Source: an uncultured Rhodospirillales bacterium
GTDB taxonomy: Bacteria; Pseudomonadota; Alphaproteobacteria; ATCC43930; CGMCC-115725
Reading direction: 5' to 3'
DNA length: 64,000 nucleotides
Assembly: GCA_903828515.1 (NCBI GenBank)
Contig: CAIKMD010000002.1
Span: 558,001-622,000 of the forward strand
This document shows, in pieces, positions 30,873 to 54,467 of the stretch (position 1 is the stretch's first letter; each line of letters begins with the position of its first letter). Under the pieces are notes generated by a model. The model saw nothing but the letters and a program-made list of their open reading frames with translations. It was not told the DNA's origin and ran no database searches. The translations under genes were made by a program, and so were the position numbers.

Positions 30873-31631
30873 ATGACCACCAAAACCTGTCTCGTCACCG
30901 GCGCCGGCCAGGGGATCGGGCGCGCCATCGCGCTGCATTTTGCGGCGCGCGGTGCCAACGTCGTGCTGGCCGAACAGAAAGCCGAGACCGGCGAGGCCGT
31001 CGCATCCGAGATCGCGGCCGCGGGCGGCTCGGCGCTGTTGGTCGAAACCGACGTCGCCGATCCGCAATCGGTGCGCACGATGATCACGCGCGCGACGGCG
31101 AAATTCGGCCGCATCGATATTTTGATCAGCAACGCGCGCTGGTCGGGCCTTGCCTCGACCCCGGTTCAGGACATCACCGACGCCGATTGGCAACGCGCGA
31201 TGGACGTCAACGTCACCGGCGCGTTTCATTGCGTGCGATCGGTCGTGCCGGGGATGATCGAGGCGGGATGGGGCCGGATCGTGATCCTCTCGTCGAGCAC
31301 CGTGTTGTCGCCGCCCGCGCGGCGTCCCTATGTGCATTACCTTTCCACCAAGGCCGCGTTGATCGGCATGACCCGCGCGCTGGCCGTGGAACTGGGCGCG
31401 CACGGCATCACGGTCAACGCGATCCTGCCCGGATCGGTTGAGACGGGCGCGGACCGGCCAAGCCCGGTCACCACCGAACAGCGCGAGCAGCGCGCCCGCG
31501 AAGGCCAGGCGATCCCCCGCGTTCTGCGCCCCGCCGACATGGCGGGCGCCGCCTGGTTCCTCGCCTCGGACGAGGCCGCGCTGATCACCGGCCAATCGAT
31601 CGCGGTGAATGGCGGAAGCCAGTTTAATTAG
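30873..31631 (+). CDS. SDR family NAD(P)-dependent oxidoreductase
   Basis: A 252-residue short-chain dehydrogenase: cofactor motif TGAGQGIG, NAR variant of the NNAG motif (LISNARWSG), catalytic Ser in VILSSSTV, and Tyr/Lys in RPYVHYLSTKAAL. The C-terminus closes with [10 protein letters not shown]. Substrate unknown. The ATG at 30873 has GAGG seven bases upstream. The last 331 bases are repeated, about 94-95% identical, downstream of the RelB/YafQ module at 32284-32614. Confidence 0.88.
   Translation: MTTKTCLVTGAGQGIGRAIALHFAARGANVVLAEQKAETGEAVASEIAAAGGSALLVETDVADPQSVRTMITRATAKFGRIDILISNARWSGLASTPVQDITDADWQRAMDVNVTGAFHCVRSVVPGMIEAGWGRIVILSSSTVLSPPARRPYVHYLSTKAALIGMTRALAVELGAHGITVNAILPGSVETGADRPSPVTTEQREQRAREGQAIPRVLRPADMAGAAWFLASDEAALITGQSIAVNGGSQFN
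31300..31630 (+). repeat. Direct repeat copy A: 3' end of the intact SDR gene
   Basis: Copy A of a 331-base direct repeat whose partner is 32284-32614, offset exactly 984 bases with no indel in my hand alignment (about 18 mismatches). Between the copies lie only the RelB/YafQ module and its promoter region. Confidence 0.9.
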
Positions 31632-31740: not shown

Positions 31741-32004
31741 ATGGGCAAAACGCAAACCGTTCGCGCACGGATCGAGCCGGAGCTTAAGCGCGGCGCCGAA
31801 GCCGTGCTCAAAAAGATCGGCCTGACCTCGAGCGAGGCGATCACCCTTTTCCTGACCCAGGTCAAGCTCACCAAGGGTCTTCCGTTTCCGTTGCGCGTCC
31901 CGAATGACGTCACGGATCGCGCCATCAAGCAGGCACGCGCCCGAAAAGGCGTCGAAACCTTTCCCACCGTTGCCGAATGGGCCAAAAAGGCGCGCTCGCT
32001 CTAG
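31741..32004 (+). CDS. RelB/DinJ family antitoxin
   Basis: An 87-residue RelB/DinJ-type antitoxin: N-terminal strand and helix (TQTVRARIEPELKRGAEAVL) and the typical LGLTSSEAI-like stretch GLTSSEAITLFLTQVKLTKG followed by PFPLRVPN. It would bind and neutralise the YafQ toxin encoded six bases downstream and repress its own promoter. The ATG at 31741 has GGGAG about eight bases upstream; an upstream in-frame start near 31726 overlaps that site. Confidence 0.88.
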   Translation: MGKTQTVRARIEPELKRGAEAVLKKIGLTSSEAITLFLTQVKLTKGLPFPLRVPNDVTDRAIKQARARKGVETFPTVAEWAKKARSL

Positions 32005-32010
32005 GCTCTC

Positions 32011-32280
32011 ATGCGGCGCATCACGCAACAGGCGCAGTTTCAAAAAGACCTGAGACGCCAGCGGCGGCGCGGCAAAGATATCGAAGAACTTATCGCCGCC
32101 GTCGAACTCTTGGCCGAGACCGGAAACCTCCCGAAGGGCTACGCTCCGCATTTTTTATCGGGTGAATGGAAGGGTGTGTCCGAGTGCCATATCGAGCCGG
32201 ATTGGCTCTTGATTTACGACGTGACGCCGGATGAAGTGGTTCTGATCCGCACTGGAACGCATGCCGATTTGTTCGAATGA
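32011..32280 (+). CDS. yafQ: YafQ-type mRNA interferase toxin
   Basis: An 89-residue RelE-superfamily toxin. The YafQ residues align with a constant offset of three from E. coli YafQ: H47, H60, D64, H84 and F88 (motifs [26 protein letters not shown]). It should cut mRNA on the ribosome. It appears intact. Its stop codon is followed after only three bases by a copy of the 3' part of the upstream SDR gene. Confidence 0.92.
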
Positions 32281-32283
32281 CAT

Positions 32284-32616
<333 letters not shown>

Positions 32617-40253: not shown

Positions 40254-40285
40254 GACGGTAAGATTGGGCTGGATGACGAGCAGGG

Positions 40286-40379
40286 GTCCTTCGACACGCT
40301 CAGGACGAGGTTGATCTCACGCGCCATCGCCGATCGGTGCCACGAAGAAAATCTCCTCGTCCTGAGCGTGTCGAAGGAC
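40286..40379. repeat. Perfect 25-base inverted repeat (REP/MITE-like)
   Basis: The left arm 40286-40310 begins GTCCTTCGACACGCTCAGGA and the right arm 40355-40379 is its exact reverse complement; the loop is 44 bases. Such GTCCTTCGACACGCTC elements recur in many GC-rich proteobacterial genomes between convergent genes, as here between the terminase-like gene and the convergent gene at 40425. Confidence 0.85.
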
Positions 40380-40424
40380 GCACGATCGTTTTGCAGTCGA
40401 CTTGCGTCTTCGGCGCGCGCCCGC

Positions 40425-43224: not shown

Positions 43225-45048
43225 ATGTGCGGCATCGTCGGCATCGTCGGGCGCCAGGAAGTGGCGCCGCTTCTTCTCGATGGCCTGAAGCGCCTCGAAT
43301 ATCGCGGCTATGATTCGGCGGGCATCGCCACGCTGGTCGACGGCAAAATCGAGCGCCGGCGCGCGCAGGGGAAACTCTCGGCGCTCGCCGACCTGATCAA
43401 GACATCGCCGGTGCACGGCCATATCGGCATCGGCCACACGCGCTGGGCGACCCATGGCGTGCCGAGCGAAGCCAACGCCCATCCGATCGCCACCGCCAAG
43501 GTCGCCGTTGTCCATAACGGCATCATCGAGAATTTCCAGGCGCTGAAGGCGGAACTGACCGCGCTCGGCTATGCCTTCACCAGCCAGACCGACACCGAAG
43601 TGATTGCCGTTCTCGTCACCCGCTATCTCGACGAAGGGATGTCGCCGGTCGACGCCGTCGCGAAATCCTTGAAGCGTCTCGAAGGCGCCTTCGCGCTGGT
43701 GCTGCTCTTCGCCGGGCACAGCGACCGGGTGATCTGCGCGCGGCGCGGCTCGCCGCTGGCGATCGGGCTGGGCGAGGGCGAGATGTATGTGGGTTCGGAC
43801 GCGCTGGCGCTGGCGCCGCTCACCCGCCGCATCCTTTATCTCGACGACGGCGACTGGGCGGTGGTGACCGCCAATGCCGTGGCGATCCGCGATATGCACG
43901 ACCAGCCGGTCGAGCGCGCGATCAAGGAGACCGCGCTCTCCGGCGCCGCGATCGGCAAGGGCAATCACCCGCATTTCATGAAGAAGGAAATCTTCGAGCA
44001 GCCGGCGGTGATCGGCGACACGCTCAAGGAGCATTTCAACCCGGTGACGCGCACGGTCAGCCTGCCGGCGCTGCCGTTCGATTTGGCCGACATCGCGCAT
44101 GTCACGGCGATCGCCTGCGGCACCTCGTTTCACGCGGCGCTGATCGCCAAATACTGGATCGAGAAATACGCGCGCGTGCCCTGCGAGGTCGATATCGCTT
44201 CGGAGTTCCGCTATCGCGCCGCGGATATGCCGAAAGGCGGCCTCGCCATCTTCATCTCGCAATCGGGCGAGACGGCCGACACGCTCGCGGCGCTCCGTTA
44301 CGCCAAGAGCCAAGGCCAGCGCATCGTCGTCGTCGTCAACCAGCCGGAAAGCTCGATGGCGCGCGAGGCCGACGCGGTGCTGGCGACGCATGCCGGACCC
44401 GAGATCGGCGTGGCATCCACGAAAGCCTTCACCACACAGCTCGTCGTCGTCGCCTGCCTCGCCATCGCGATGGCGCGCGCCAAGGGCAAGATCGACGCCG
44501 CGCACGAAGCCGCGCTGTCGACCGCGCTCACCGAAGTGCCGTCGCGCGCGAGCGAAGTCCTCAACCACGACGAGGCGATCAAGGCGATGGCGCCGTGGTT
44601 CGCCGAGGCGCGCGACGTGCTCTATCTCGGCCGCGGCACGTCATATCCGATGGCGCTCGAAGGCGCCTTGAAGCTCAAGGAAATCTCCTACATTCACGCC
44701 GAGGGCTATGCCGCCGGTGAGATGAAGCACGGGCCGATCGCATTGATCGACGACCGCGTGCCGATCGTCGTCCTCGCGCCGCGCGACGATCTCTTCGAGA
44801 AGACCTTATCCAACGTGCAGGAGGTTCTCGCGCGCGGCGGCAAGGTCGTGATGATCTCGGACCGCGAGGGCCTCAAACGCCTCGACGGCCAGCTCACCTA
44901 CGCGATCGAGGTCCCGCATTGCGACCCGTTCGTGGCGCCGCTGCTCTATGCGATCCCGGTGCAACTCCTGGCGTATCACGTCGCCGTTCACAAAGGCACC
45001 GACGTCGACCAGCCGCGCAACCTCGCCAAGAGCGTGACGGTGGAGTAG
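43225..45048 (+). CDS. glmS: Glutamine-fructose-6-phosphate aminotransferase (isomerizing)
   Basis: A 607-residue enzyme making glucosamine 6-phosphate. The N-terminal Cys nucleophile follows the initiator Met (MCGIVGIVG); the glutaminase has LEYRGYDSAG and GHTRWATHG; two SIS domains follow (ACGTSFHAAL; SQSGETADTL) and the end is [10 protein letters not shown]. The last 40 codons are repeated at 45772-45894 after the MntA/HepT module. The end of glmS is the classic recognition site of Tn7 in other bacteria, though no Tn7 gene is seen here. Essential for peptidoglycan and lipopolysaccharide precursors together with glmU. Confidence 0.97.
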   Translation: MCGIVGIVGRQEVAPLLLDGLKRLEYRGYDSAGIATLVDGKIERRRAQGKLSALADLIKTSPVHGHIGIGHTRWATHGVPSEANAHPIATAKVAVVHNGIIENFQALKAELTALGYAFTSQTDTEVIAVLVTRYLDEGMSPVDAVAKSLKRLEGAFALVLLFAGHSDRVICARRGSPLAIGLGEGEMYVGSDALALAPLTRRILYLDDGDWAVVTANAVAIRDMHDQPVERAIKETALSGAAIGKGNHPHFMKKEIFEQPAVIGDTLKEHFNPVTRTVSLPALPFDLADIAHVTAIACGTSFHAALIAKYWIEKYARVPCEVDIASEFRYRAADMPKGGLAIFISQSGETADTLAALRYAKSQGQRIVVVVNQPESSMAREADAVLATHAGPEIGVASTKAFTTQLVVVACLAIAMARAKGKIDAAHEAALSTALTEVPSRASEVLNHDEAIKAMAPWFAEARDVLYLGRGTSYPMALEGALKLKEISYIHAEGYAAGEMKHGPIALIDDRVPIVVLAPRDDLFEKTLSNVQEVLARGGKVVMISDREGLKRLDGQLTYAIEVPHCDPFVAPLLYAIPVQLLAYHVAVHKGTDVDQPRNLAKSVTVE

Positions 45049-45050
45049 GG
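44928..45050 (+). repeat. Direct repeat copy A: 3' end of glmS
   Basis: Copy A of a 123-base direct repeat; copy B is 45772-45894, offset 844 bases without indels. The copies differ at seven positions, all third codon positions and all silent (TTC/TTT, GTG/GTC, TAT/TAC, CAA/CAG, CTG/CTC, GCG/GCC, GTT/GTC). Confidence 0.92.
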
Positions 45051-45121
45051 ACTGGGCGGGCCGCGCTGGCGAGACTTTGTTCAATCGCGTATAATCGCTT
45101 CGACAGGTCGAGACGAGCATC

Positions 45122-45411
45122 ATGCGCAATTTCGAAGACATCATCGGTGATTTGCGGCGAATGAAACCCGAATTGTTACGTCGCTATCCCATTCGCGGCA
45201 TCGGCGTTTTCGGGTCGTACGTCCATGGCGATCAAACCGAGACGAGCGATCTCGACGTGCTGGTGGATTTGCGCGCGGGGATCGGCTTGATGGGGCTCGC
45301 GGGTTTGCAGCAGGATCTGAGCGACCAGCTTGGCCTCAAGGTCGACCTCGTCATTCAGGATGCCTTGAAGCGCGACATCGGCGAACGGATTTTGGCCGAA
45401 GTGGTGATGGC

Positions 45412-45415
<4 letters not shown>
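45122..45415 (+). CDS. mntA: MntA-type nucleotidyltransferase antitoxin
   Basis: A 97-residue minimal nucleotidyltransferase. The active-site motif [19 protein letters not shown] is the GSx(10)DxD form. In the HepT/MntA system this protein modifies (AMPylates) the HEPN toxin to silence it. A TATAAT at 45090-45095 is a likely -10 box. It lies 73 bases after glmS and overlaps the toxin gene by four bases (GTGA). Confidence 0.9.
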
Positions 45416-45894
<479 letters not shown>

Positions 45895-45935
45895 GCGGAG
45901 CAGACGGCTGAGTTCGGCGGTAAGCCCCGTCGCCG

Positions 45936-46718
45936 ATGAAGAATGTCCAAACGCCACCGCAAATTGACGAGGTCTATGCTCCGCCAGGTACAGTCGTAGG
46001 TGTAAATACGCCGGTTCCGGTCGTGCGGATTGTTTTTCCCGAGAAAGTTTTCTTCGACTTTAATCAAGCAGTTCCTCGCACGGAGGCGATGCAAATAATT
46101 GAGACCGTGGCCGCGAACATGCGGCGTGATGTACCAGACGCTTCTCTTACATTGCTCGGACACACTGATGCCGTAGGTTCAGACGAATACAATGTAGCGC
46201 TATCGCAACGAAGAGCATCAACAGTGCTGGCAGAGCTCGTCCGCAGGGATGTGAATCCAAACCAGTTAAGCACCGTTGCAATCGGAAAAGCCCAACCCAT
46301 AGCAACGAACTCGACCGAAGACGGAAGAGCGCGGAATAGGCGAGTCGAGTTTCTCATTTCTGGTTCTGAAAAAGCGAACCTATCCGTCGTTGAGGATCGA
46401 CCAATAAATTCCGCTTATTTGACGTCTCCGGGGCAGGTCGCGGCATTTTTGCCAAGACCCGTTACGGTACTCAGGCCCATCCGCGCGCCGAGTGGTCCGG
46501 CAGATGAAGGTATATTGGGGCCAGCGGGGATCCTGACGTTGAGAGCGCCAGACCCGAACCCCGAACCCACTGCCGCAATCTTGACGAAGATCACACCAAC
46601 TGCCGGACCAGAGCCGGTCATTGCCCGGCCATCCGCCCCCGCCCCGAAGATACTGCTTCGGGAACCGGAAAAGGTCTTGCCCGCCCCACTAGGGGACGTT
46701 GCGCCCCTCAACTTCTGA
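45936..46718 (+). CDS. OmpA-family domain protein without signal peptide
   Basis: A 260-residue protein. An OmpA-like peptidoglycan-binding domain spans about residues 34-142: VFFDFNQAVPRTEAMQ, LLGHTDAVGSDEYNVALSQR (D78 binds diaminopimelate in the family) and RARNRRVEFL (R135). A Pro-rich tail follows. There is no signal peptide; a stop codon lies in frame 15 bases before the ATG, so either the start is lost, the N-terminus was cut when the upstream DNA arrived, or the protein uses another route. First gene of a low-GC block, 22 bases before the next gene. Confidence 0.75.
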   Translation: MKNVQTPPQIDEVYAPPGTVVGVNTPVPVVRIVFPEKVFFDFNQAVPRTEAMQIIETVAANMRRDVPDASLTLLGHTDAVGSDEYNVALSQRRASTVLAELVRRDVNPNQLSTVAIGKAQPIATNSTEDGRARNRRVEFLISGSEKANLSVVEDRPINSAYLTSPGQVAAFLPRPVTVLRPIRAPSGPADEGILGPAGILTLRAPDPNPEPTAAILTKITPTAGPEPVIARPSAPAPKILLREPEKVLPAPLGDVAPLNF

Positions 46719-46739
46719 ACATCATACCGGCGGAATCGA

Positions 46740-48101
46740 ATGGCAAAAACCTCGGATCAAATAAAACCAAACGCGACTTTCGATGGCCAAGTATCGCCCA
46801 GCCTAGAAGCGGCCTTTCAGGGCACTCAGAGCTTTCAGTCTTCGCGCGCGACCGGATTCGCAATGTCCTCTAGTGATGCCATCGCGCTCGCAAAAGAAGA
46901 AGCCGCGTTCGGCAAAATCGATGTTGATGACAAGGGGCTTACAGCAGGGATGCGGCTCCATGTTTTGCAGCCCGCACGCTCTGTGCTTGCCGACTGGCGA
47001 ACGGCGCGGGCACCATTTGACCAGATTCTTGCGCCTCATATCAGTAAAATCGAATCAATTGATAAATCCGCGGAGGAGATCGACGAGCTACGTCGAAAAT
47101 GTACGCGCGAAGAGGCTGATCTCGAAAGAACACTGGAAGCCAACACAAAATACGTACAGGTGAAAGAACGGTACGATAATGCCGTATCGCGATATAAACA
47201 AAAATTCGCCGAAAACGATCAGCGTGTGCCGGTGTTATGGGGATATAGCCCAACCTATATCATCGCCTTGGCATTCACAGGCGTTGCCGAGTGGTTTATC
47301 AACTACGACGTTTTCGTGCGGTTTCTACAGGTGCCAGCATGGGCCGCGGCGACAGCGATAATTTTGGGTGCCCTACTTGCATTTTCTGCGCATGGATACG
47401 GGAAGCTCCTAAAACAGTGGGCTTACCGTTTTGGACGTGCTCGTACCCGGGCTCAACGATTCACGGACTGGCGTTTTCTGGCGCTCTCCACTCTCGGCCT
47501 ATCGATCGTGCTCGTCGCAGCGGGCGGATCGCGCTACGCCGCCGTCATGCGCCTCATAGGTAACGCGCCCACAATTAACTTGTTGGGCGGAGAAGCCAGC
47601 ATCGATATCAACCCAATCCGAGACGTACTGATCAGTCTGCTCGGCAATATCGGGGCGTGGGTCGTCGGCGTATTCTGGGCATACATCGGCCACGACCAAG
47701 ACCCCGACTACATGGAAGCTGCACACGAACGCGAAAAAGCGCAGGACATTTACAACCGATTTCGCAAAGATTTGGATCAAGAGAAAGAAACAGTTCGCGC
47801 AAGATACGCGATCGAAATCTCAAAGAAAGAGAATGCCGCCCAGACGTTTCTTCGTGACTTCGAACGGTTACGTAACCTTCTGCTGCAGGTACGTGAGCAT
47901 GAGAATGCGATAATTGGCGATCTACAAACGACTTTGCTGACCAATGCCCAACGTTATCACGACGCGCTTATCCAATTGGCTGCCAAAGAACCGGATAAAT
48001 TGTCGTTCATTCGCGGCGATGCAAGCCAAACGATCTCAGCCTACGAATACAAAAATATGCCACTTAAATTTGATTCCTCATTCGTGCGAGGGCTCGTTTG
48101 A
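46740..48101 (+). CDS. Coiled-coil inner-membrane protein, function unknown
   Basis: A 453-residue protein. A soluble N-terminal part ends in a predicted coiled coil (about 105-160, ESIDKSAEEIDELRRKCTREE). Four hydrophobic segments follow at about 172-192, 201-217, 245-262 and 295-316, then a long charged coiled coil (about 325-400). This is a membrane platform with large cytoplasmic coiled coils. Loosely, MotA/ZorA-like partners of OmpA-domain proteins have similar parts, but the helix layout and motifs do not match and I do not assign that family. It overlaps the next gene by four bases (TTGA). Base composition is visibly AT-richer than the housekeeping genes. Confidence 0.75.
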   Translation: MAKTSDQIKPNATFDGQVSPSLEAAFQGTQSFQSSRATGFAMSSSDAIALAKEEAAFGKIDVDDKGLTAGMRLHVLQPARSVLADWRTARAPFDQILAPHISKIESIDKSAEEIDELRRKCTREEADLERTLEANTKYVQVKERYDNAVSRYKQKFAENDQRVPVLWGYSPTYIIALAFTGVAEWFINYDVFVRFLQVPAWAAATAIILGALLAFSAHGYGKLLKQWAYRFGRARTRAQRFTDWRFLALSTLGLSIVLVAAGGSRYAAVMRLIGNAPTINLLGGEASIDINPIRDVLISLLGNIGAWVVGVFWAYIGHDQDPDYMEAAHEREKAQDIYNRFRKDLDQEKETVRARYAIEISKKENAAQTFLRDFERLRNLLLQVREHENAIIGDLQTTLLTNAQRYHDALIQLAAKEPDKLSFIRGDASQTISAYEYKNMPLKFDSSFVRGLV

Positions 48102-49252
48102 AAAATTTATTGTCTTCCTGCTGTGCTGTCCTATTCGTCGGTTTCATGTTGAGTGCCGCGCGGGCCGACACAGATTTGTTTGGGTCTGCAGGGCTCGATC
48201 CTGGTTTCTGTAAACAACCCAACGACCGTCAGACCGTCGTATACATCGACGATTTGATGATGGTCGATGGTAAGCCGGATTGGGCGACGAAACTCGCCAG
48301 CAAACTCCGCGCGACGCTCGCGCCTGGCGAACGTGTTACGGTTGTAAGATTGTCCCCCGCGAGTGGGAAAAGCGATGAGATATGGAGCGGTTGCTGGCCT
48401 GAGTTGAGTGCCGGCGAGCGACAAAAAATAGAAAAACAGACCTATCTATTTTCCCGAAGCCCGCTCGACGGACTTGCGGATCAAAAAAAATTCTTCATGC
48501 GCGACCTAGATAGAGCATTGTCCGTAATCTACGGAGCGACAAAGCGGCCCGCGTCTGTCGCCATGATCGACCCGCAGCAACCTCCGGACAAAAACATTAT
48601 TCGCGCGCTTGCTTTTGATGAAGGCCGTTTTGCGCAAAGCCAAATAACAATCCGGGCGATCGTTTATTCCGATTTGGCTGAAAACAGTGATCTAGGATCT
48701 GTTTTCAAACAATCTGGCGTGCTGGATAATTATGGCAAAAAGCTCGGCACATATTTACGCCGGAGTGTTTTCTACTCTTATGGGATGGGTGAGGACGTTT
48801 CAAACGCGGCTAGCGTTCTGGAGCAAACAAGAAAATTCTGGAGCAACGCATTTCGCTCGATGAATGCGAGCGTGGGCGGACTGGGCACAGATTTAAACAT
48901 GCCCAATGCGGTGCCTGTTCTTGGCCGTTCATTCGTTGTTGTACTAAAGCGTGATGGGCAAGATTTGGACGGTCGGCTATCAATCTTGGCTGACGCGGAT
49001 GGAAACCTCGTTGACAGTTGGCTGCAGATTAGTCGGCTTACCATTGCCGGGCTTGCCGGAACGTTCAAGTGTCAGGGAACCGTTGACGACCAATCTTGTC
49101 GTCTTGTCGCGAAAACTACGAGCGGAATCGTCACCCAAACCGCTGAAGAGGATATGTCGTTGGCCGGTTCCGAACGTGCAGGATTTGCGGGGCAAATCGG
49201 CGTAAAGGGCGCGCTGACTTATCCGATACAAGCGAGCAAAGCTGAGAATTAA
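48098..49252 (+). CDS. Exported protein, possible von Willebrand A-like fold
   Basis: A 384-residue protein starting at TTG 48098 inside the previous stop, with GAGGG upstream. Signal peptide: NLLSSCCAVLFVGFMLSAARA (first 23 residues). The mature start has VVYIDDLMMVDGKPDWATKL then LAPGERVTVVRLSP, a strand-helix-strand order like the opening of a VWA/Rossmann-type domain, although the full DxSxS metal site is not seen. The C-terminal 100 residues look beta-rich with Cys pairs. No family is recognised. Coupled to the upstream membrane protein. Confidence 0.7.
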   Translation: MKNLLSSCCAVLFVGFMLSAARADTDLFGSAGLDPGFCKQPNDRQTVVYIDDLMMVDGKPDWATKLASKLRATLAPGERVTVVRLSPASGKSDEIWSGCWPELSAGERQKIEKQTYLFSRSPLDGLADQKKFFMRDLDRALSVIYGATKRPASVAMIDPQQPPDKNIIRALAFDEGRFAQSQITIRAIVYSDLAENSDLGSVFKQSGVLDNYGKKLGTYLRRSVFYSYGMGEDVSNAASVLEQTRKFWSNAFRSMNASVGGLGTDLNMPNAVPVLGRSFVVVLKRDGQDLDGRLSILADADGNLVDSWLQISRLTIAGLAGTFKCQGTVDDQSCRLVAKTTSGIVTQTAEEDMSLAGSERAGFAGQIGVKGALTYPIQASKAEN

Positions 49253-49331
49253 AGCGACATATATCAAATGAAAAGTCGCAATAAACCACGCCTAGTGGTC
49301 ATAAGAATGGACGCCGGGGGAGAGAATTATA

Positions 49332-49937
49332 ATGCAAGGGTTCCGACAGAAAAAATTCGCATCAGTCGCGATTATGATTGTTTTGAGTAACGCCGTCGTT
49401 GGATGCGCAAACCGACAATACGCGACGCCTGAAGAAGCTATTCAGAATGCATGCAGTTCATTTGGACCCAAGGCGCTATCTGGAGCCCTAATTGGTGGAC
49501 TTGCTGGGGCGGCGGGCGGCGCAGCGATCGGCGCATCGGCAGGTGGGGGGCAGAATGCGGCATACGGTGCTTTGGCCGGCCTCGCGGCTGGCCTAATCGT
49601 TGGCGCGATCGTTGGTAATACAACCGATAAGAGAGACTGCGAGCAAGCCCAGTTAGCACTTCAAAGGATGACCACGGCTCCCGTCGGCACCCGCGTAGCT
49701 TGGAATAGCGCGAGCGGCAGCTACGGGGCATTTACGCCAGTAACCGACGCAAAGACCGTCAACGACCGGATCTGCCGCGAAATTCGGGCGGACTATTATA
49801 TTAAAAATCATCAACCGGTTACTGGCGAATCAGGGGTTATTTGCCGCACGCCTAGCGGCGACTGGGCGCGTGTTGCTCCGCCGGCCTCGCCAGGCTCTAC
49901 AAACGAAGCGGCACCCGTACCCAGTCAGGGGACTTAA
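49332..49937 (+). CDS. Glycine-zipper lipoprotein
   Basis: A 201-residue putative lipoprotein: basic N-terminus, hydrophobic stretch and a lipobox-like AVVGC (Cys about residue 25). A glycine-zipper follows (GALIGGLAGAAGGAAIGAS and ALAGLAAGLIVGAIVGN), which usually inserts in or spans a membrane. The C-terminal half holds Cys residues and an IRADYYIKNHQPV segment. GGGGGAGAG lies before the ATG. Probably part of the envelope gene block. Confidence 0.72.
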   Translation: MQGFRQKKFASVAIMIVLSNAVVGCANRQYATPEEAIQNACSSFGPKALSGALIGGLAGAAGGAAIGASAGGGQNAAYGALAGLAAGLIVGAIVGNTTDKRDCEQAQLALQRMTTAPVGTRVAWNSASGSYGAFTPVTDAKTVNDRICREIRADYYIKNHQPVTGESGVICRTPSGDWARVAPPASPGSTNEAAPVPSQGT

Positions 49938-49948
49938 TCCGAAATACT

Positions 49949-51046
49949 ATGCGCGCGCGAATAGCACGGCGAGGGGTCTTCAAGAAACCATTTGTCGGTT
50001 TTTTTGTACTCTTAGGCTGTGTCGTTTTTTGTCTTTGCCGACAAGCGCACGCCGCAAAAATTCAGCTCGATCAAAGTGGCCCAAGGTCAATAATCACCAT
50101 TGATGGTGATCTTGGTCCAGAAGACGGTAGAAATTTTTCCGAGAAAATCTCGGGATTAAACGGCGGTATCGTCGCCTTTAGCAGCCCTGGCGGGCAAGTT
50201 CTTGCCGGCCTTCGCATCGGCACCCTGATTAACCTACATCACTTCGATACACTAGTGGGGAACGGATACAGGTGCGCCTCTGCATGTGCCATCGCATGGC
50301 TGGGCGGAGCTGTTCGTTACATGGCGCCAAAAGGATTTATTGGTTTCCATGCTGCATATCTGATTGAGAATGGTCGACAGATTGAAAAGGGAGCTCCCAA
50401 CGCGCTAGTTGGAGCCTATTTGAATAGCCTAGGTCTCTCTTACGACGCTATTCTATATGTCACATCGACGCCGCCTCAGGATATAACCTGGCTAACGCCG
50501 AGTGAAGCTCAGGCACATGGAATTGTAGTTGCTATGTGGCCTCCTGTCGGGGGTACACAAAACCAGAGCCCGCTTGCTGTTACGCCCACCCGCCCGCCCC
50601 AATCTCCAACTGTGGAGCCTTCAAAGCCGTCGCCATCACGAGAAAATCTCGACGAAGTCGCGCGATTATTCGCGAACTCGTATTTTGCTCATTGGTCGGA
50701 GACAAATGAGGACGCGCTGCGATACTTCGGCGATGTCTACGCAGAATCAATAACCTTCTTTGACCGACAGGTTCAACGCACCGTTCTTTTAAATGAGAAG
50801 CGGAAATATGCCGAGCGTTGGCCGGAACGGATTTACACGGCGCGTCCCTCGACTATTAAAACGAACTGCACTTCGGAGACGTCAAAGTGCACGATCACAG
50901 GTCAGGTGGAATGGGATTGTCGCAATCCCCCCGAGAACCAACACTCAGTAGGCTTGGCGAATTTTACGCTTCAGATCGTGATATCGCAGGTTGGTGGTGT
51001 GACAGTTGCTGGCGAATGGAGCACGGTGGTATCGCGGCTTCAGTAA
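49949..51046 (+). CDS. Exported ClpP/crotonase-like protein with a C-terminal NTF2-like domain
   Basis: A 365-residue protein with an N-terminal hydrophobic signal (FVGFFVLLGCVVFCLC, cleavage near AHAA). The next ~150 residues are a ClpP-like fold seen in secreted proteins: AFSSPGGQVLAGLRIG, then CASACAIAW with candidate nucleophile S111 and GFHAAY with candidate H134. After a Pro-rich linker (about 185-210) comes a C-terminal region of about 145 residues with the size and opening helix of an NTF2/SnoaL-like domain (inference). It closes the low-GC block; 12 bases separate it from the lipoprotein gene. Confidence 0.75.
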   Translation: MRARIARRGVFKKPFVGFFVLLGCVVFCLCRQAHAAKIQLDQSGPRSIITIDGDLGPEDGRNFSEKISGLNGGIVAFSSPGGQVLAGLRIGTLINLHHFDTLVGNGYRCASACAIAWLGGAVRYMAPKGFIGFHAAYLIENGRQIEKGAPNALVGAYLNSLGLSYDAILYVTSTPPQDITWLTPSEAQAHGIVVAMWPPVGGTQNQSPLAVTPTRPPQSPTVEPSKPSPSRENLDEVARLFANSYFAHWSETNEDALRYFGDVYAESITFFDRQVQRTVLLNEKRKYAERWPERIYTARPSTIKTNCTSETSKCTITGQVEWDCRNPPENQHSVGLANFTLQIVISQVGGVTVAGEWSTVVSRLQ

Positions 51047-54336: not shown

Positions 54337-54467
54337 CACCTCACCCTCCCATTGCTATCGCAATGGGTCCCTCCCTCTCCCCGCAAGCGCGGAGAGGGGC
54401 TTCGTAGCACCAACCCTCTCCACCCATTGGGGGGGAGAGGGTGCGAGCATCGCGAGCGGGTGAGGTG
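54337..54467. repeat. Nested palindromic intergenic repeat
   Basis: The outer arms CACCTCACCC (54337-54346) and GGGTGAGGTG (54458-54467) are exact reverse complements. Inside are a perfect hairpin CCCATTGC-TATC-GCAATGGG (54348-54367), a CCTCTCCCCGC/GCGGAGAGGGG pair and ACCCTCTCC/GGAGAGGGT (54413-54421/54434-54442). Elements of this kind are common dispersed repeats in alphaproteobacteria. It fills most of the 222-base gap between two convergent genes. Confidence 0.8.

What the first reader, a model, noticed from the sequence alone, without database searches (positions are those of the whole stretch)
45936..51046. Unassigned five-gene envelope block next to the duplicated glmS end
Seen: five same-strand genes with small gaps or overlaps and lower GC by eye: OmpA-domain protein, four-helix membrane protein with long coiled coils, exported protein with a VWA-like opening, glycine-zipper lipoprotein, exported ClpP-like protein with an extra C-terminal region. 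The parts span inner membrane, periplasm and peptidoglycan, as in a trans-envelope machine. The position (after TA and restriction-modification genes, at a glmS-linked site) is typical of defence or competition cargo. I know no named system with this composition; Zorya and Tol-Pal share only the OmpA theme.
Basis: partly seen in the sequence, partly recalled or inferred. Interest (0 to 1): 0.8.

Follow-up and report, generated by a model that had tools for sequence, protein, structure and literature searches.

The report
Undescribed four-gene cell-envelope module, truncated here
This is a horizontally acquired, partly damaged copy of a rare four-gene unit, kept together across distant bacteria and described nowhere we could find, whose proteins appear to bridge the inner membrane, periplasm and cell wall; its job is unknown.

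Summary
The five ORFs are real, on one strand, in a low-GC block (53% against 62% window mean). Four of them form a conserved module; the fifth (ClpP-like) does not. Homologues of gene 2 (four-TM, two coiled coils) were read in 15 other loci, from Acidiphilium, Rhizobium, Agrobacterium, Sinorhizobium, Novosphingobium and unnamed Pseudomonadota genomes. In every one it is adjacent to a gene-3 homologue (exported, VWA-like). Twelve of the 15 also carry the OmpA gene and the glycine-zipper lipoprotein; three carry only the core pair. Neither core family is in Pfam, NCBIfam, PADLOC or PDB at significance. (1) The OmpA gene here is 5'-truncated at the duplicated glmS end: all 12 other copies have about 40-110 further N-terminal residues, most with a signal-like stretch, plus a conserved motif, both absent here. 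(2) Defence-island context is weak: one of 15 loci lies among known defence genes. Best explanation: a trans-envelope complex, with OmpA and lipoprotein anchors joined through a periplasmic VWA-like adaptor to a membrane protein with cytosolic coiled coils. Its function (envelope maintenance, stress sensing or phage defence) is inferred and untested. It fails tests for Zorya/MotAB stators.

The parts
44928..45064 (+). 3' end of intact glmS (copy 1 of the duplication)
   Evidence: family D2; glmS ORF 43225-45048
45122..45771 (+). Small nucleotidyltransferase (45122-45415) and HEPN-like partner (45412-45771), a toxin-antitoxin-like pair between the two glmS ends; not part of the module
   Evidence: ORFs; PADLOC PDC-S09 E=1.2e-23 for the first; pair type from my reading of the sequence
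45772..45908 (+). Second, diverged copy of the glmS 3' end; about the last 60 bases to the stop are identical to copy 1, with scattered differences upstream. Left edge of the module
45936..46718 (+). Gene 1: OmpA-domain protein, 5'-truncated. In-frame stop at 45921; homology to relatives begins at about residue 2; no signal peptide, no ExxDRxxRL-type motif
46740..48101 (+). Gene 2: inner-membrane protein, four TM helices, long helices before (69-160) and after (322-416); E184, N188, G221, N303 invariant in 16 relatives
48098..49252 (+). Gene 3: exported VWA-like protein with C-terminal beta domain; C38, D51, C99, P101 invariant in 16 relatives
49332..49937 (+). Gene 4: glycine-zipper lipoprotein with C-terminal CR...CRxxxGDW region (17 kDa surface antigen type)
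49949..51046 (+). Gene 5: exported ClpP-like protein with extra C-terminal region; compositional passenger of the same island, not part of the conserved module

Best explanation
Genes 1-4 are a horizontally acquired copy of a rare, undescribed four-gene module whose products most likely form one trans-envelope complex. The 4TM protein sits in the inner membrane with both coiled-coil segments in the cytosol. The VWA-like protein is the periplasmic adaptor that docks on it. The glycine-zipper lipoprotein and the OmpA protein hold the complex to the outer membrane and peptidoglycan. Tension or damage in the envelope would be passed through the adaptor to the cytosolic coiled coils, so the complex would work as an envelope tether and sensor. 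Shown: co-conservation, gene order, export signals or hydrophobic topology, conserved residues. Inferred: physical complex, direction of signalling, biological role. In this genome the OmpA anchor cannot be exported as encoded, so this copy is probably decaying, or works as the OmpA-less core pair seen elsewhere.
For: Gene-2 and gene-3 homologues are adjacent in all 16 loci examined, window included. Reciprocal searches of the same 385 genomes give the same nine genomes. Direct BLAST of window gene 3 against the neighbours of gene 2 gives E=1e-107 to 3.5e-4 in 11 loci. The four-gene set occurs in 13 loci in two orders: OmpA-4TM-VWA-lipoprotein (7) and lipoprotein-4TM-VWA-OmpA (6). Three diverged loci keep only the core pair; their homology to the long forms is firm in a test without self-inclusion (hhalign score 111 and 188 against shuffle maxima of 23). 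Export: OmpA copies elsewhere carry signal-like N-termini or lipoboxes, and gene 4 a lipobox. Intramembrane polar residues E184, N188, N303 and a conserved Cys pair C38/C99 suggest a functional interface and a periplasmic fold. Truncation.
Against: No structure of a complex was computed; the single-chain models are weak (pLDDT 45 and 67) and fold searches found nothing significant. Loci were found through gene 2, and the gene-3 profile was built from its neighbours, so eight of the nine co-occurring class genomes (window genome included) were training members. The three core-pair loci lack both anchors, so bridging to the cell wall is not needed for every form. No cytosolic effector is encoded, so what the coiled coils would signal to is unknown.
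Confidence: 0.55

Rival explanations
1. It is an anti-phage defence system: the envelope-spanning complex senses phage attachment or DNA entry and blocks it at the membrane, as Zorya is thought to do.
For: Patchy distribution (10 of 385 alphaproteobacterial genomes, 1 of 119 in one family); presence on conjugative plasmids; low-GC island near TA and type I restriction genes in the window; one plasmid copy lies between IetAS and ZacC/DruE-like genes.
Against: No PADLOC model matches genes 2-5 significantly, and gene 1 only through its OmpA domain. Related Rhizobium plasmids carry the same module with no annotated defence genes beside it. Many chromosomal copies lie among housekeeping genes such as the fab cluster, tamAB/typA-like genes, lepA and carA. 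No nuclease or other effector is in the module.
Confidence: 0.25
2. It is an accessory envelope-maintenance unit, a Tol-Pal-like strut that keeps outer membrane, wall and inner membrane together under stress, with no signalling.
For: Two envelope-anchor proteins (OmpA domain; glycine-zipper lipoprotein with a 17 kDa antigen-type end). Together they resemble the two halves of YiaD-type lipoproteins.
Against: Rare and patchy, unlike maintenance systems; it lacks TolQ/TolR/TolB homologues; long cytosolic coiled coils are not needed for a strut.
Confidence: 0.3
3. In this genome the block is a dead remnant: a decayed fragment fused to glmS, with no function. (This concerns the window copy only and is compatible with any function of the intact module.)
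For: Gene 1 has lost signal and N-terminal motif exactly at the glmS duplicate; the other genome of its genus lacks the module.
Against: Genes 2, 3 and 4 are full length with start, signal or lipobox and conserved residues intact; the core pair stands alone in three other loci.
Confidence: 0.35

Closest known systems
Zorya ZorAB (and MotAB, TolQR, ExbBD stators)
   Same: Inner-membrane multi-helix protein with cytosolic helical extension, encoded next to an OmpA-type peptidoglycan-binding domain
   Different: No MotA/TolQ/ExbB-family match for gene 2; the OmpA protein is an exported protein or lipoprotein, not a TM helix with the stator Asp; no ZorC/D/E; two extra conserved components
Tol-Pal
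   Same: Pal-like OmpA domain protein as outer-membrane and wall anchor
   Different: No TolQ, TolR, TolA or TolB homologue; different inner-membrane protein; accessory rather than core
YiaD-type glycine-zipper/OmpA lipoproteins (NF053611)
   Same: Gene 4 matches the zipper half (E=8.8e-5) and gene 1 the OmpA half (E=1.3e-31)
   Different: Split into two genes, with a 4TM and a VWA-like partner
17 kDa surface antigen family (PF16998)
   Same: C-terminal region of gene 4 (E=5.6e-5, slightly below curated cut-off)
   Different: Encoded beside the 4TM/VWA pair in the four-gene loci examined here

Membership tests
Zorya / MotAB-type stator | Inner-membrane subunit homologous to MotA/ZorA/TolQ/ExbB | tested here: not met
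   No such match for gene 2 in Pfam, NCBIfam or PADLOC, nor in Pfam for its 9 relatives
Zorya / MotAB-type stator | OmpA-domain partner with N-terminal TM helix bearing the critical Asp (ZorB D24/D21; PMC11890865) | tested here: not met
   Relatives have a signal-like N-terminus, in three a clear lipobox, followed by an ExxDRxxRL-type region; the window copy lacks any N-terminal helix. Judged by reading the N-termini; no dedicated TM/Asp scan was done
Zorya / MotAB-type stator | 5:2 assembly | not testable with these tools
   No complex prediction available
Zorya | Effector genes zorC/zorD or zorE nearby | tested here: not met
   No Zorya effector among the PADLOC matches of 113 flanking genes at 1e-15
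Tol-Pal | TolQ, TolR, TolA, TolB with Pal | tested here: not met
   Only an OmpA/Pal-like domain is present
VWA domain proteins | VWA fold | tested here: inconclusive
   No Pfam VWA hit. Profile comparison with 23 known VWA domains aligns D51 with the MIDAS Asp; score 19.7 (1 of 150 shuffles as high); for short forms 28.1 against shuffle maximum 17.9 of 120. Model confidence low
VWA domain proteins | Complete DxSxS MIDAS motif | tested here: not met
   Only the first Asp is invariant
OmpA/Pal peptidoglycan-binding domain | OmpA domain with conserved NRRVE-type and GHTD...YN..LS..RA motifs | tested here: met
   PF00691 E=1.5e-18 over 98/98 positions; most motif residues invariant in 7 relatives
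Defence-island cargo | Repeated proximity to known defence genes | tested here: inconclusive
   One of 15 non-window loci clearly; window has RM and TA genes within 14 kb; no matched background control was run

The most novel reading that the evidence does not exclude
The module is the founding example of a new class of trans-envelope machine or sensor, unrelated to the Mot/Tol/Exb/Zorya stators. In it a periplasmic VWA-like adaptor couples wall and outer-membrane anchors to a 4TM protein with an invariant intramembrane E/N cluster and cytosolic coiled coils; the core pair is the ancestral unit and the anchors were added in two alternative gene orders.
Probability: 0.35. Interest if true: 0.8.

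Novelty: categorically new. Interest (0 to 1): 0.6.

Why it matters
Two protein families without Pfam, NCBIfam, PADLOC or PDB relatives are kept together with two envelope anchors across distant Pseudomonadota and on conjugative plasmids. That is a well-bounded, testable, unstudied gene system; its plasmid copies in culturable Rhizobium, Agrobacterium, Sinorhizobium and Novosphingobium can be deleted or expressed directly. 'Categorically new' refers to composition and families; the function is open, and the literature search covered open-access papers only.

Tried and rejected
Pfam, NCBIfam, PHROGs and PADLOC scans of all five proteins, Pfam scans of all nine members of both core alignments and PDB sequence searches gave no family for genes 2 and 3. 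Phage records (gene 2) and viral contigs (genes 2 and 3) hold no relatives. Alignment-based viral scans were impossible (too little conservation). Literature searches for a described system with these parts found none. Rejected: that gene 5 belongs to the module (absent from the other loci where the flank could be read; similar proteins are common elsewhere, 347 plasmid records; L002 ends before the place where it could stand). Rejected: that a missed upstream start restores gene 1 (in-frame TAA at 45921, and the sequence upstream is the glmS end). Checked: no second DNA copy of the retained gene-1 region in the assembly (only the glmS end matched again); a displaced N-terminus alone, absent from the query, could not have been found this way.
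Full report
OBSERVATION. The five ORFs exist at the stated places on the + strand, with small gaps and one 4-base overlap. Their GC is 0.528 as a block against a window mean of 0.616; the minimum of 5.1-kb windows taken every 100 bases is 0.528 at 46001, and GC3 is 0.49-0.54 against 0.87 for glmS. The block therefore has one foreign composition, gene 5 included. The glmS 3' end is present twice, 44928-45064 and 45772-45908 (91%). About the last 60 bases to the stop codon are identical, with scattered differences upstream. Between the copies lies a small nucleotidyltransferase/HEPN-like pair (45122-45771). The other genome of the same genus in the set has glmS at 86% protein identity but no gene-2 match and no synteny to the right.

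WHAT THE GENES ARE. Gene 1 has a full OmpA domain (E=1.5e-18). Genes 2, 3 and 5 have no Pfam family at curated cut-off; gene 5 has weak ClpP-related matches. Gene 4 is a glycine-zipper lipoprotein whose end resembles the 17 kDa surface antigen domain (5.6e-5). No member of either core alignment, nor their profiles, finds a convincing Pfam family or solved structure.

THE MODULE. One genome scan with gene 2 found an Acidiphilium MAG contig (L002) carrying genes 1-4 in the window's order, with 42%, 30%, 42% and 42% identity, up to the contig end. Whole-genome searches found eight genomes in 385 of the class with the gene-2 sequence alone, ten with its profile, and two further genomes in the phylum draw (G549 and G698), besides one weak hit of E=8.4e-4. 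Plasmid searches added Rhizobium, Agrobacterium, Sinorhizobium and Novosphingobium. Neighbourhoods were read for 16 loci, window included. In all 16, gene 2 is adjacent to a gene-3 homologue. Thirteen hold the full set: OmpA-4TM-VWA-lipoprotein in the window, L002, L010, L013, L014, L031 and L036; lipoprotein-4TM-VWA-OmpA in L011, L012, L030, L033, L034 and L035. The lipoprotein was often missed by annotation but is recognised by its CR...CRxxxGDW end (L031 by eye). In L030 and L035 the zipper half is incomplete in the ORF as read. Three loci (L015, L016, L061) hold only a core pair with a short gene 3.

IS THE LINKAGE REAL? Searching the same 385 genomes with the gene-3 profile returned the same nine genomes as gene 2, at the adjacent positions; the only extra gene-2 hit was weak (G360, 6.9e-4). 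This is partly circular, because eight of those nine (window genome included) contributed to the profiles. Independent support: window gene 3 alone finds the neighbour in 11 loci at E<=3.5e-4, and loci not used in the profiles (L030, L031, L061, plasmids) show the same neighbours. The short and long forms were compared with each excluded from the other: gene-3 hhalign score 111 (shuffle maximum 23 in 60), gene-2 score 188 (shuffle maximum 23). The distribution is sparse everywhere it was sampled: 10 of 385 in the class, 1 of 119 in the family of G322, 2 of 14 in the family of G146, 1 of 48 in the class of G549.

CONSERVED RESIDUES AND TOPOLOGY. Across 16 relatives gene 2 keeps E184 and N188 (end of TM1), G221 and N303 (TM4); R265, H318 and D319 are 15 of 16. 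Four hydrophobic segments and no N-terminal signal put both long helical segments on the same side, most likely the cytosol (inference). Gene 3 keeps C38, D51, C99 and P101 in all 16. The Cys pair suits an oxidised periplasmic fold (inference). Its N-terminal half aligns with VWA domains so that D51 meets the first MIDAS Asp; for the full family the score is at the edge of shuffled controls (1 of 150 as high), for the short forms above all 120; the rest of the MIDAS motif is missing. The AlphaFold model, made from two sequences, has mean pLDDT 45 and is usable only in the C-terminal beta region.

THE WINDOW COPY IS DAMAGED. All 12 other OmpA genes extend about 40-110 residues further at the N-terminus than the window gene. 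Most carry a hydrophobic signal-like stretch, in three a clear lipobox, and nearly all a motif of the type EHxDRxxRLxRL. The window gene starts at an ATG 15 bases after the start of an in-frame stop (TAA, 45921), a few tens of bases after the stop of the second glmS end, and homology begins at about its second residue. The glmS junction has therefore removed the OmpA gene's start, signal and probably its promoter. No second copy of the retained OmpA region exists in the assembly. An assembly error cannot be excluded without reads.

CONTEXT. Of 113 genes flanking the 15 other loci, ten PADLOC models matched at 1e-15, one member each. The hits I placed (IetS, ZacC, PDC-M27C and DruE) are on the Rhizobium NXC14 plasmid, where an IetA-like gene is also present; a HIT-family match is probably the ordinary HIT gene in L031. 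Related plasmids with the same module lack annotated equivalents. Several chromosomal copies sit inside housekeeping regions, for example between fabG- and acpP-like genes in L031 (names from my reading of the translations). No matched background was computed, so defence association is open.

MECHANISM. The best-supported reading is a trans-envelope complex: membrane protein with cytosolic coiled coils, periplasmic VWA-like adaptor, and two outer anchors to membrane and wall, acting as tether and sensor. Co-conservation and export features are shown; assembly, signal and role are inferred. Rivals are phage defence, a passive strut, and, for this genome only, a dead remnant.

KNOWN SYSTEMS. In Zorya, five ZorA surround two ZorB helices whose Asp (D24 or D21) lies at a Ser/Thr ring, and the ZorB peptidoglycan domain and ZorA extension are needed for defence (PMC11890865). 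The present module shares the theme but fails the tested family features. Tol-Pal shares only the anchor domain. On the libraries available here the module is undescribed.

Noticed in passing
31300-31599 and 32284-32583: The 3' part of an SDR gene is duplicated (94%) around a small TA-like pair (31741-32280), followed by type I restriction genes: the same layout as the glmS duplication around a TA pair followed by the envelope module.
   Followed up: partly
L002 180-1067: PAAR-motif protein with a C-terminal Ntox37 domain beside the module in the Acidiphilium contig.
   Followed up: no
L033 (pRspNXC14a): Module lies near IetA/IetS-like genes on one side and ZacC- and DruE-like genes on the other; the related plasmid loci L091/L092 show no annotated equivalents.
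   Followed up: partly
L031 7997-12030: Module inserted between fabG- and acpP-like genes of a fatty-acid synthesis cluster, same strand.
   Followed up: no
L061 7790-8518; L062 3210-3938: Unknown 242-aa protein directly after the core pair, without Pfam or PADLOC match; also present in L032.
   Followed up: partly
G895 contigs C29 and C81 (L061, L062): Two near-identical copies of the core-pair region on separate contigs of one genome with 7% contamination, probably an assembly duplicate.
   Followed up: no
L033 12072-14005; L091, L092: In Rhizobium plasmids the module is followed by a conserved 280-aa hypothetical protein and a thermonuclease-family protein.
   Followed up: no
40269-40396: 42-nt inverted repeat with 83% complementary arms, 44 nt apart.
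   Followed up: no
54338-54399: Short intergenic stretch with an 85% match near glmS in the other genome of the genus, probably a dispersed repeat.
   Followed up: no
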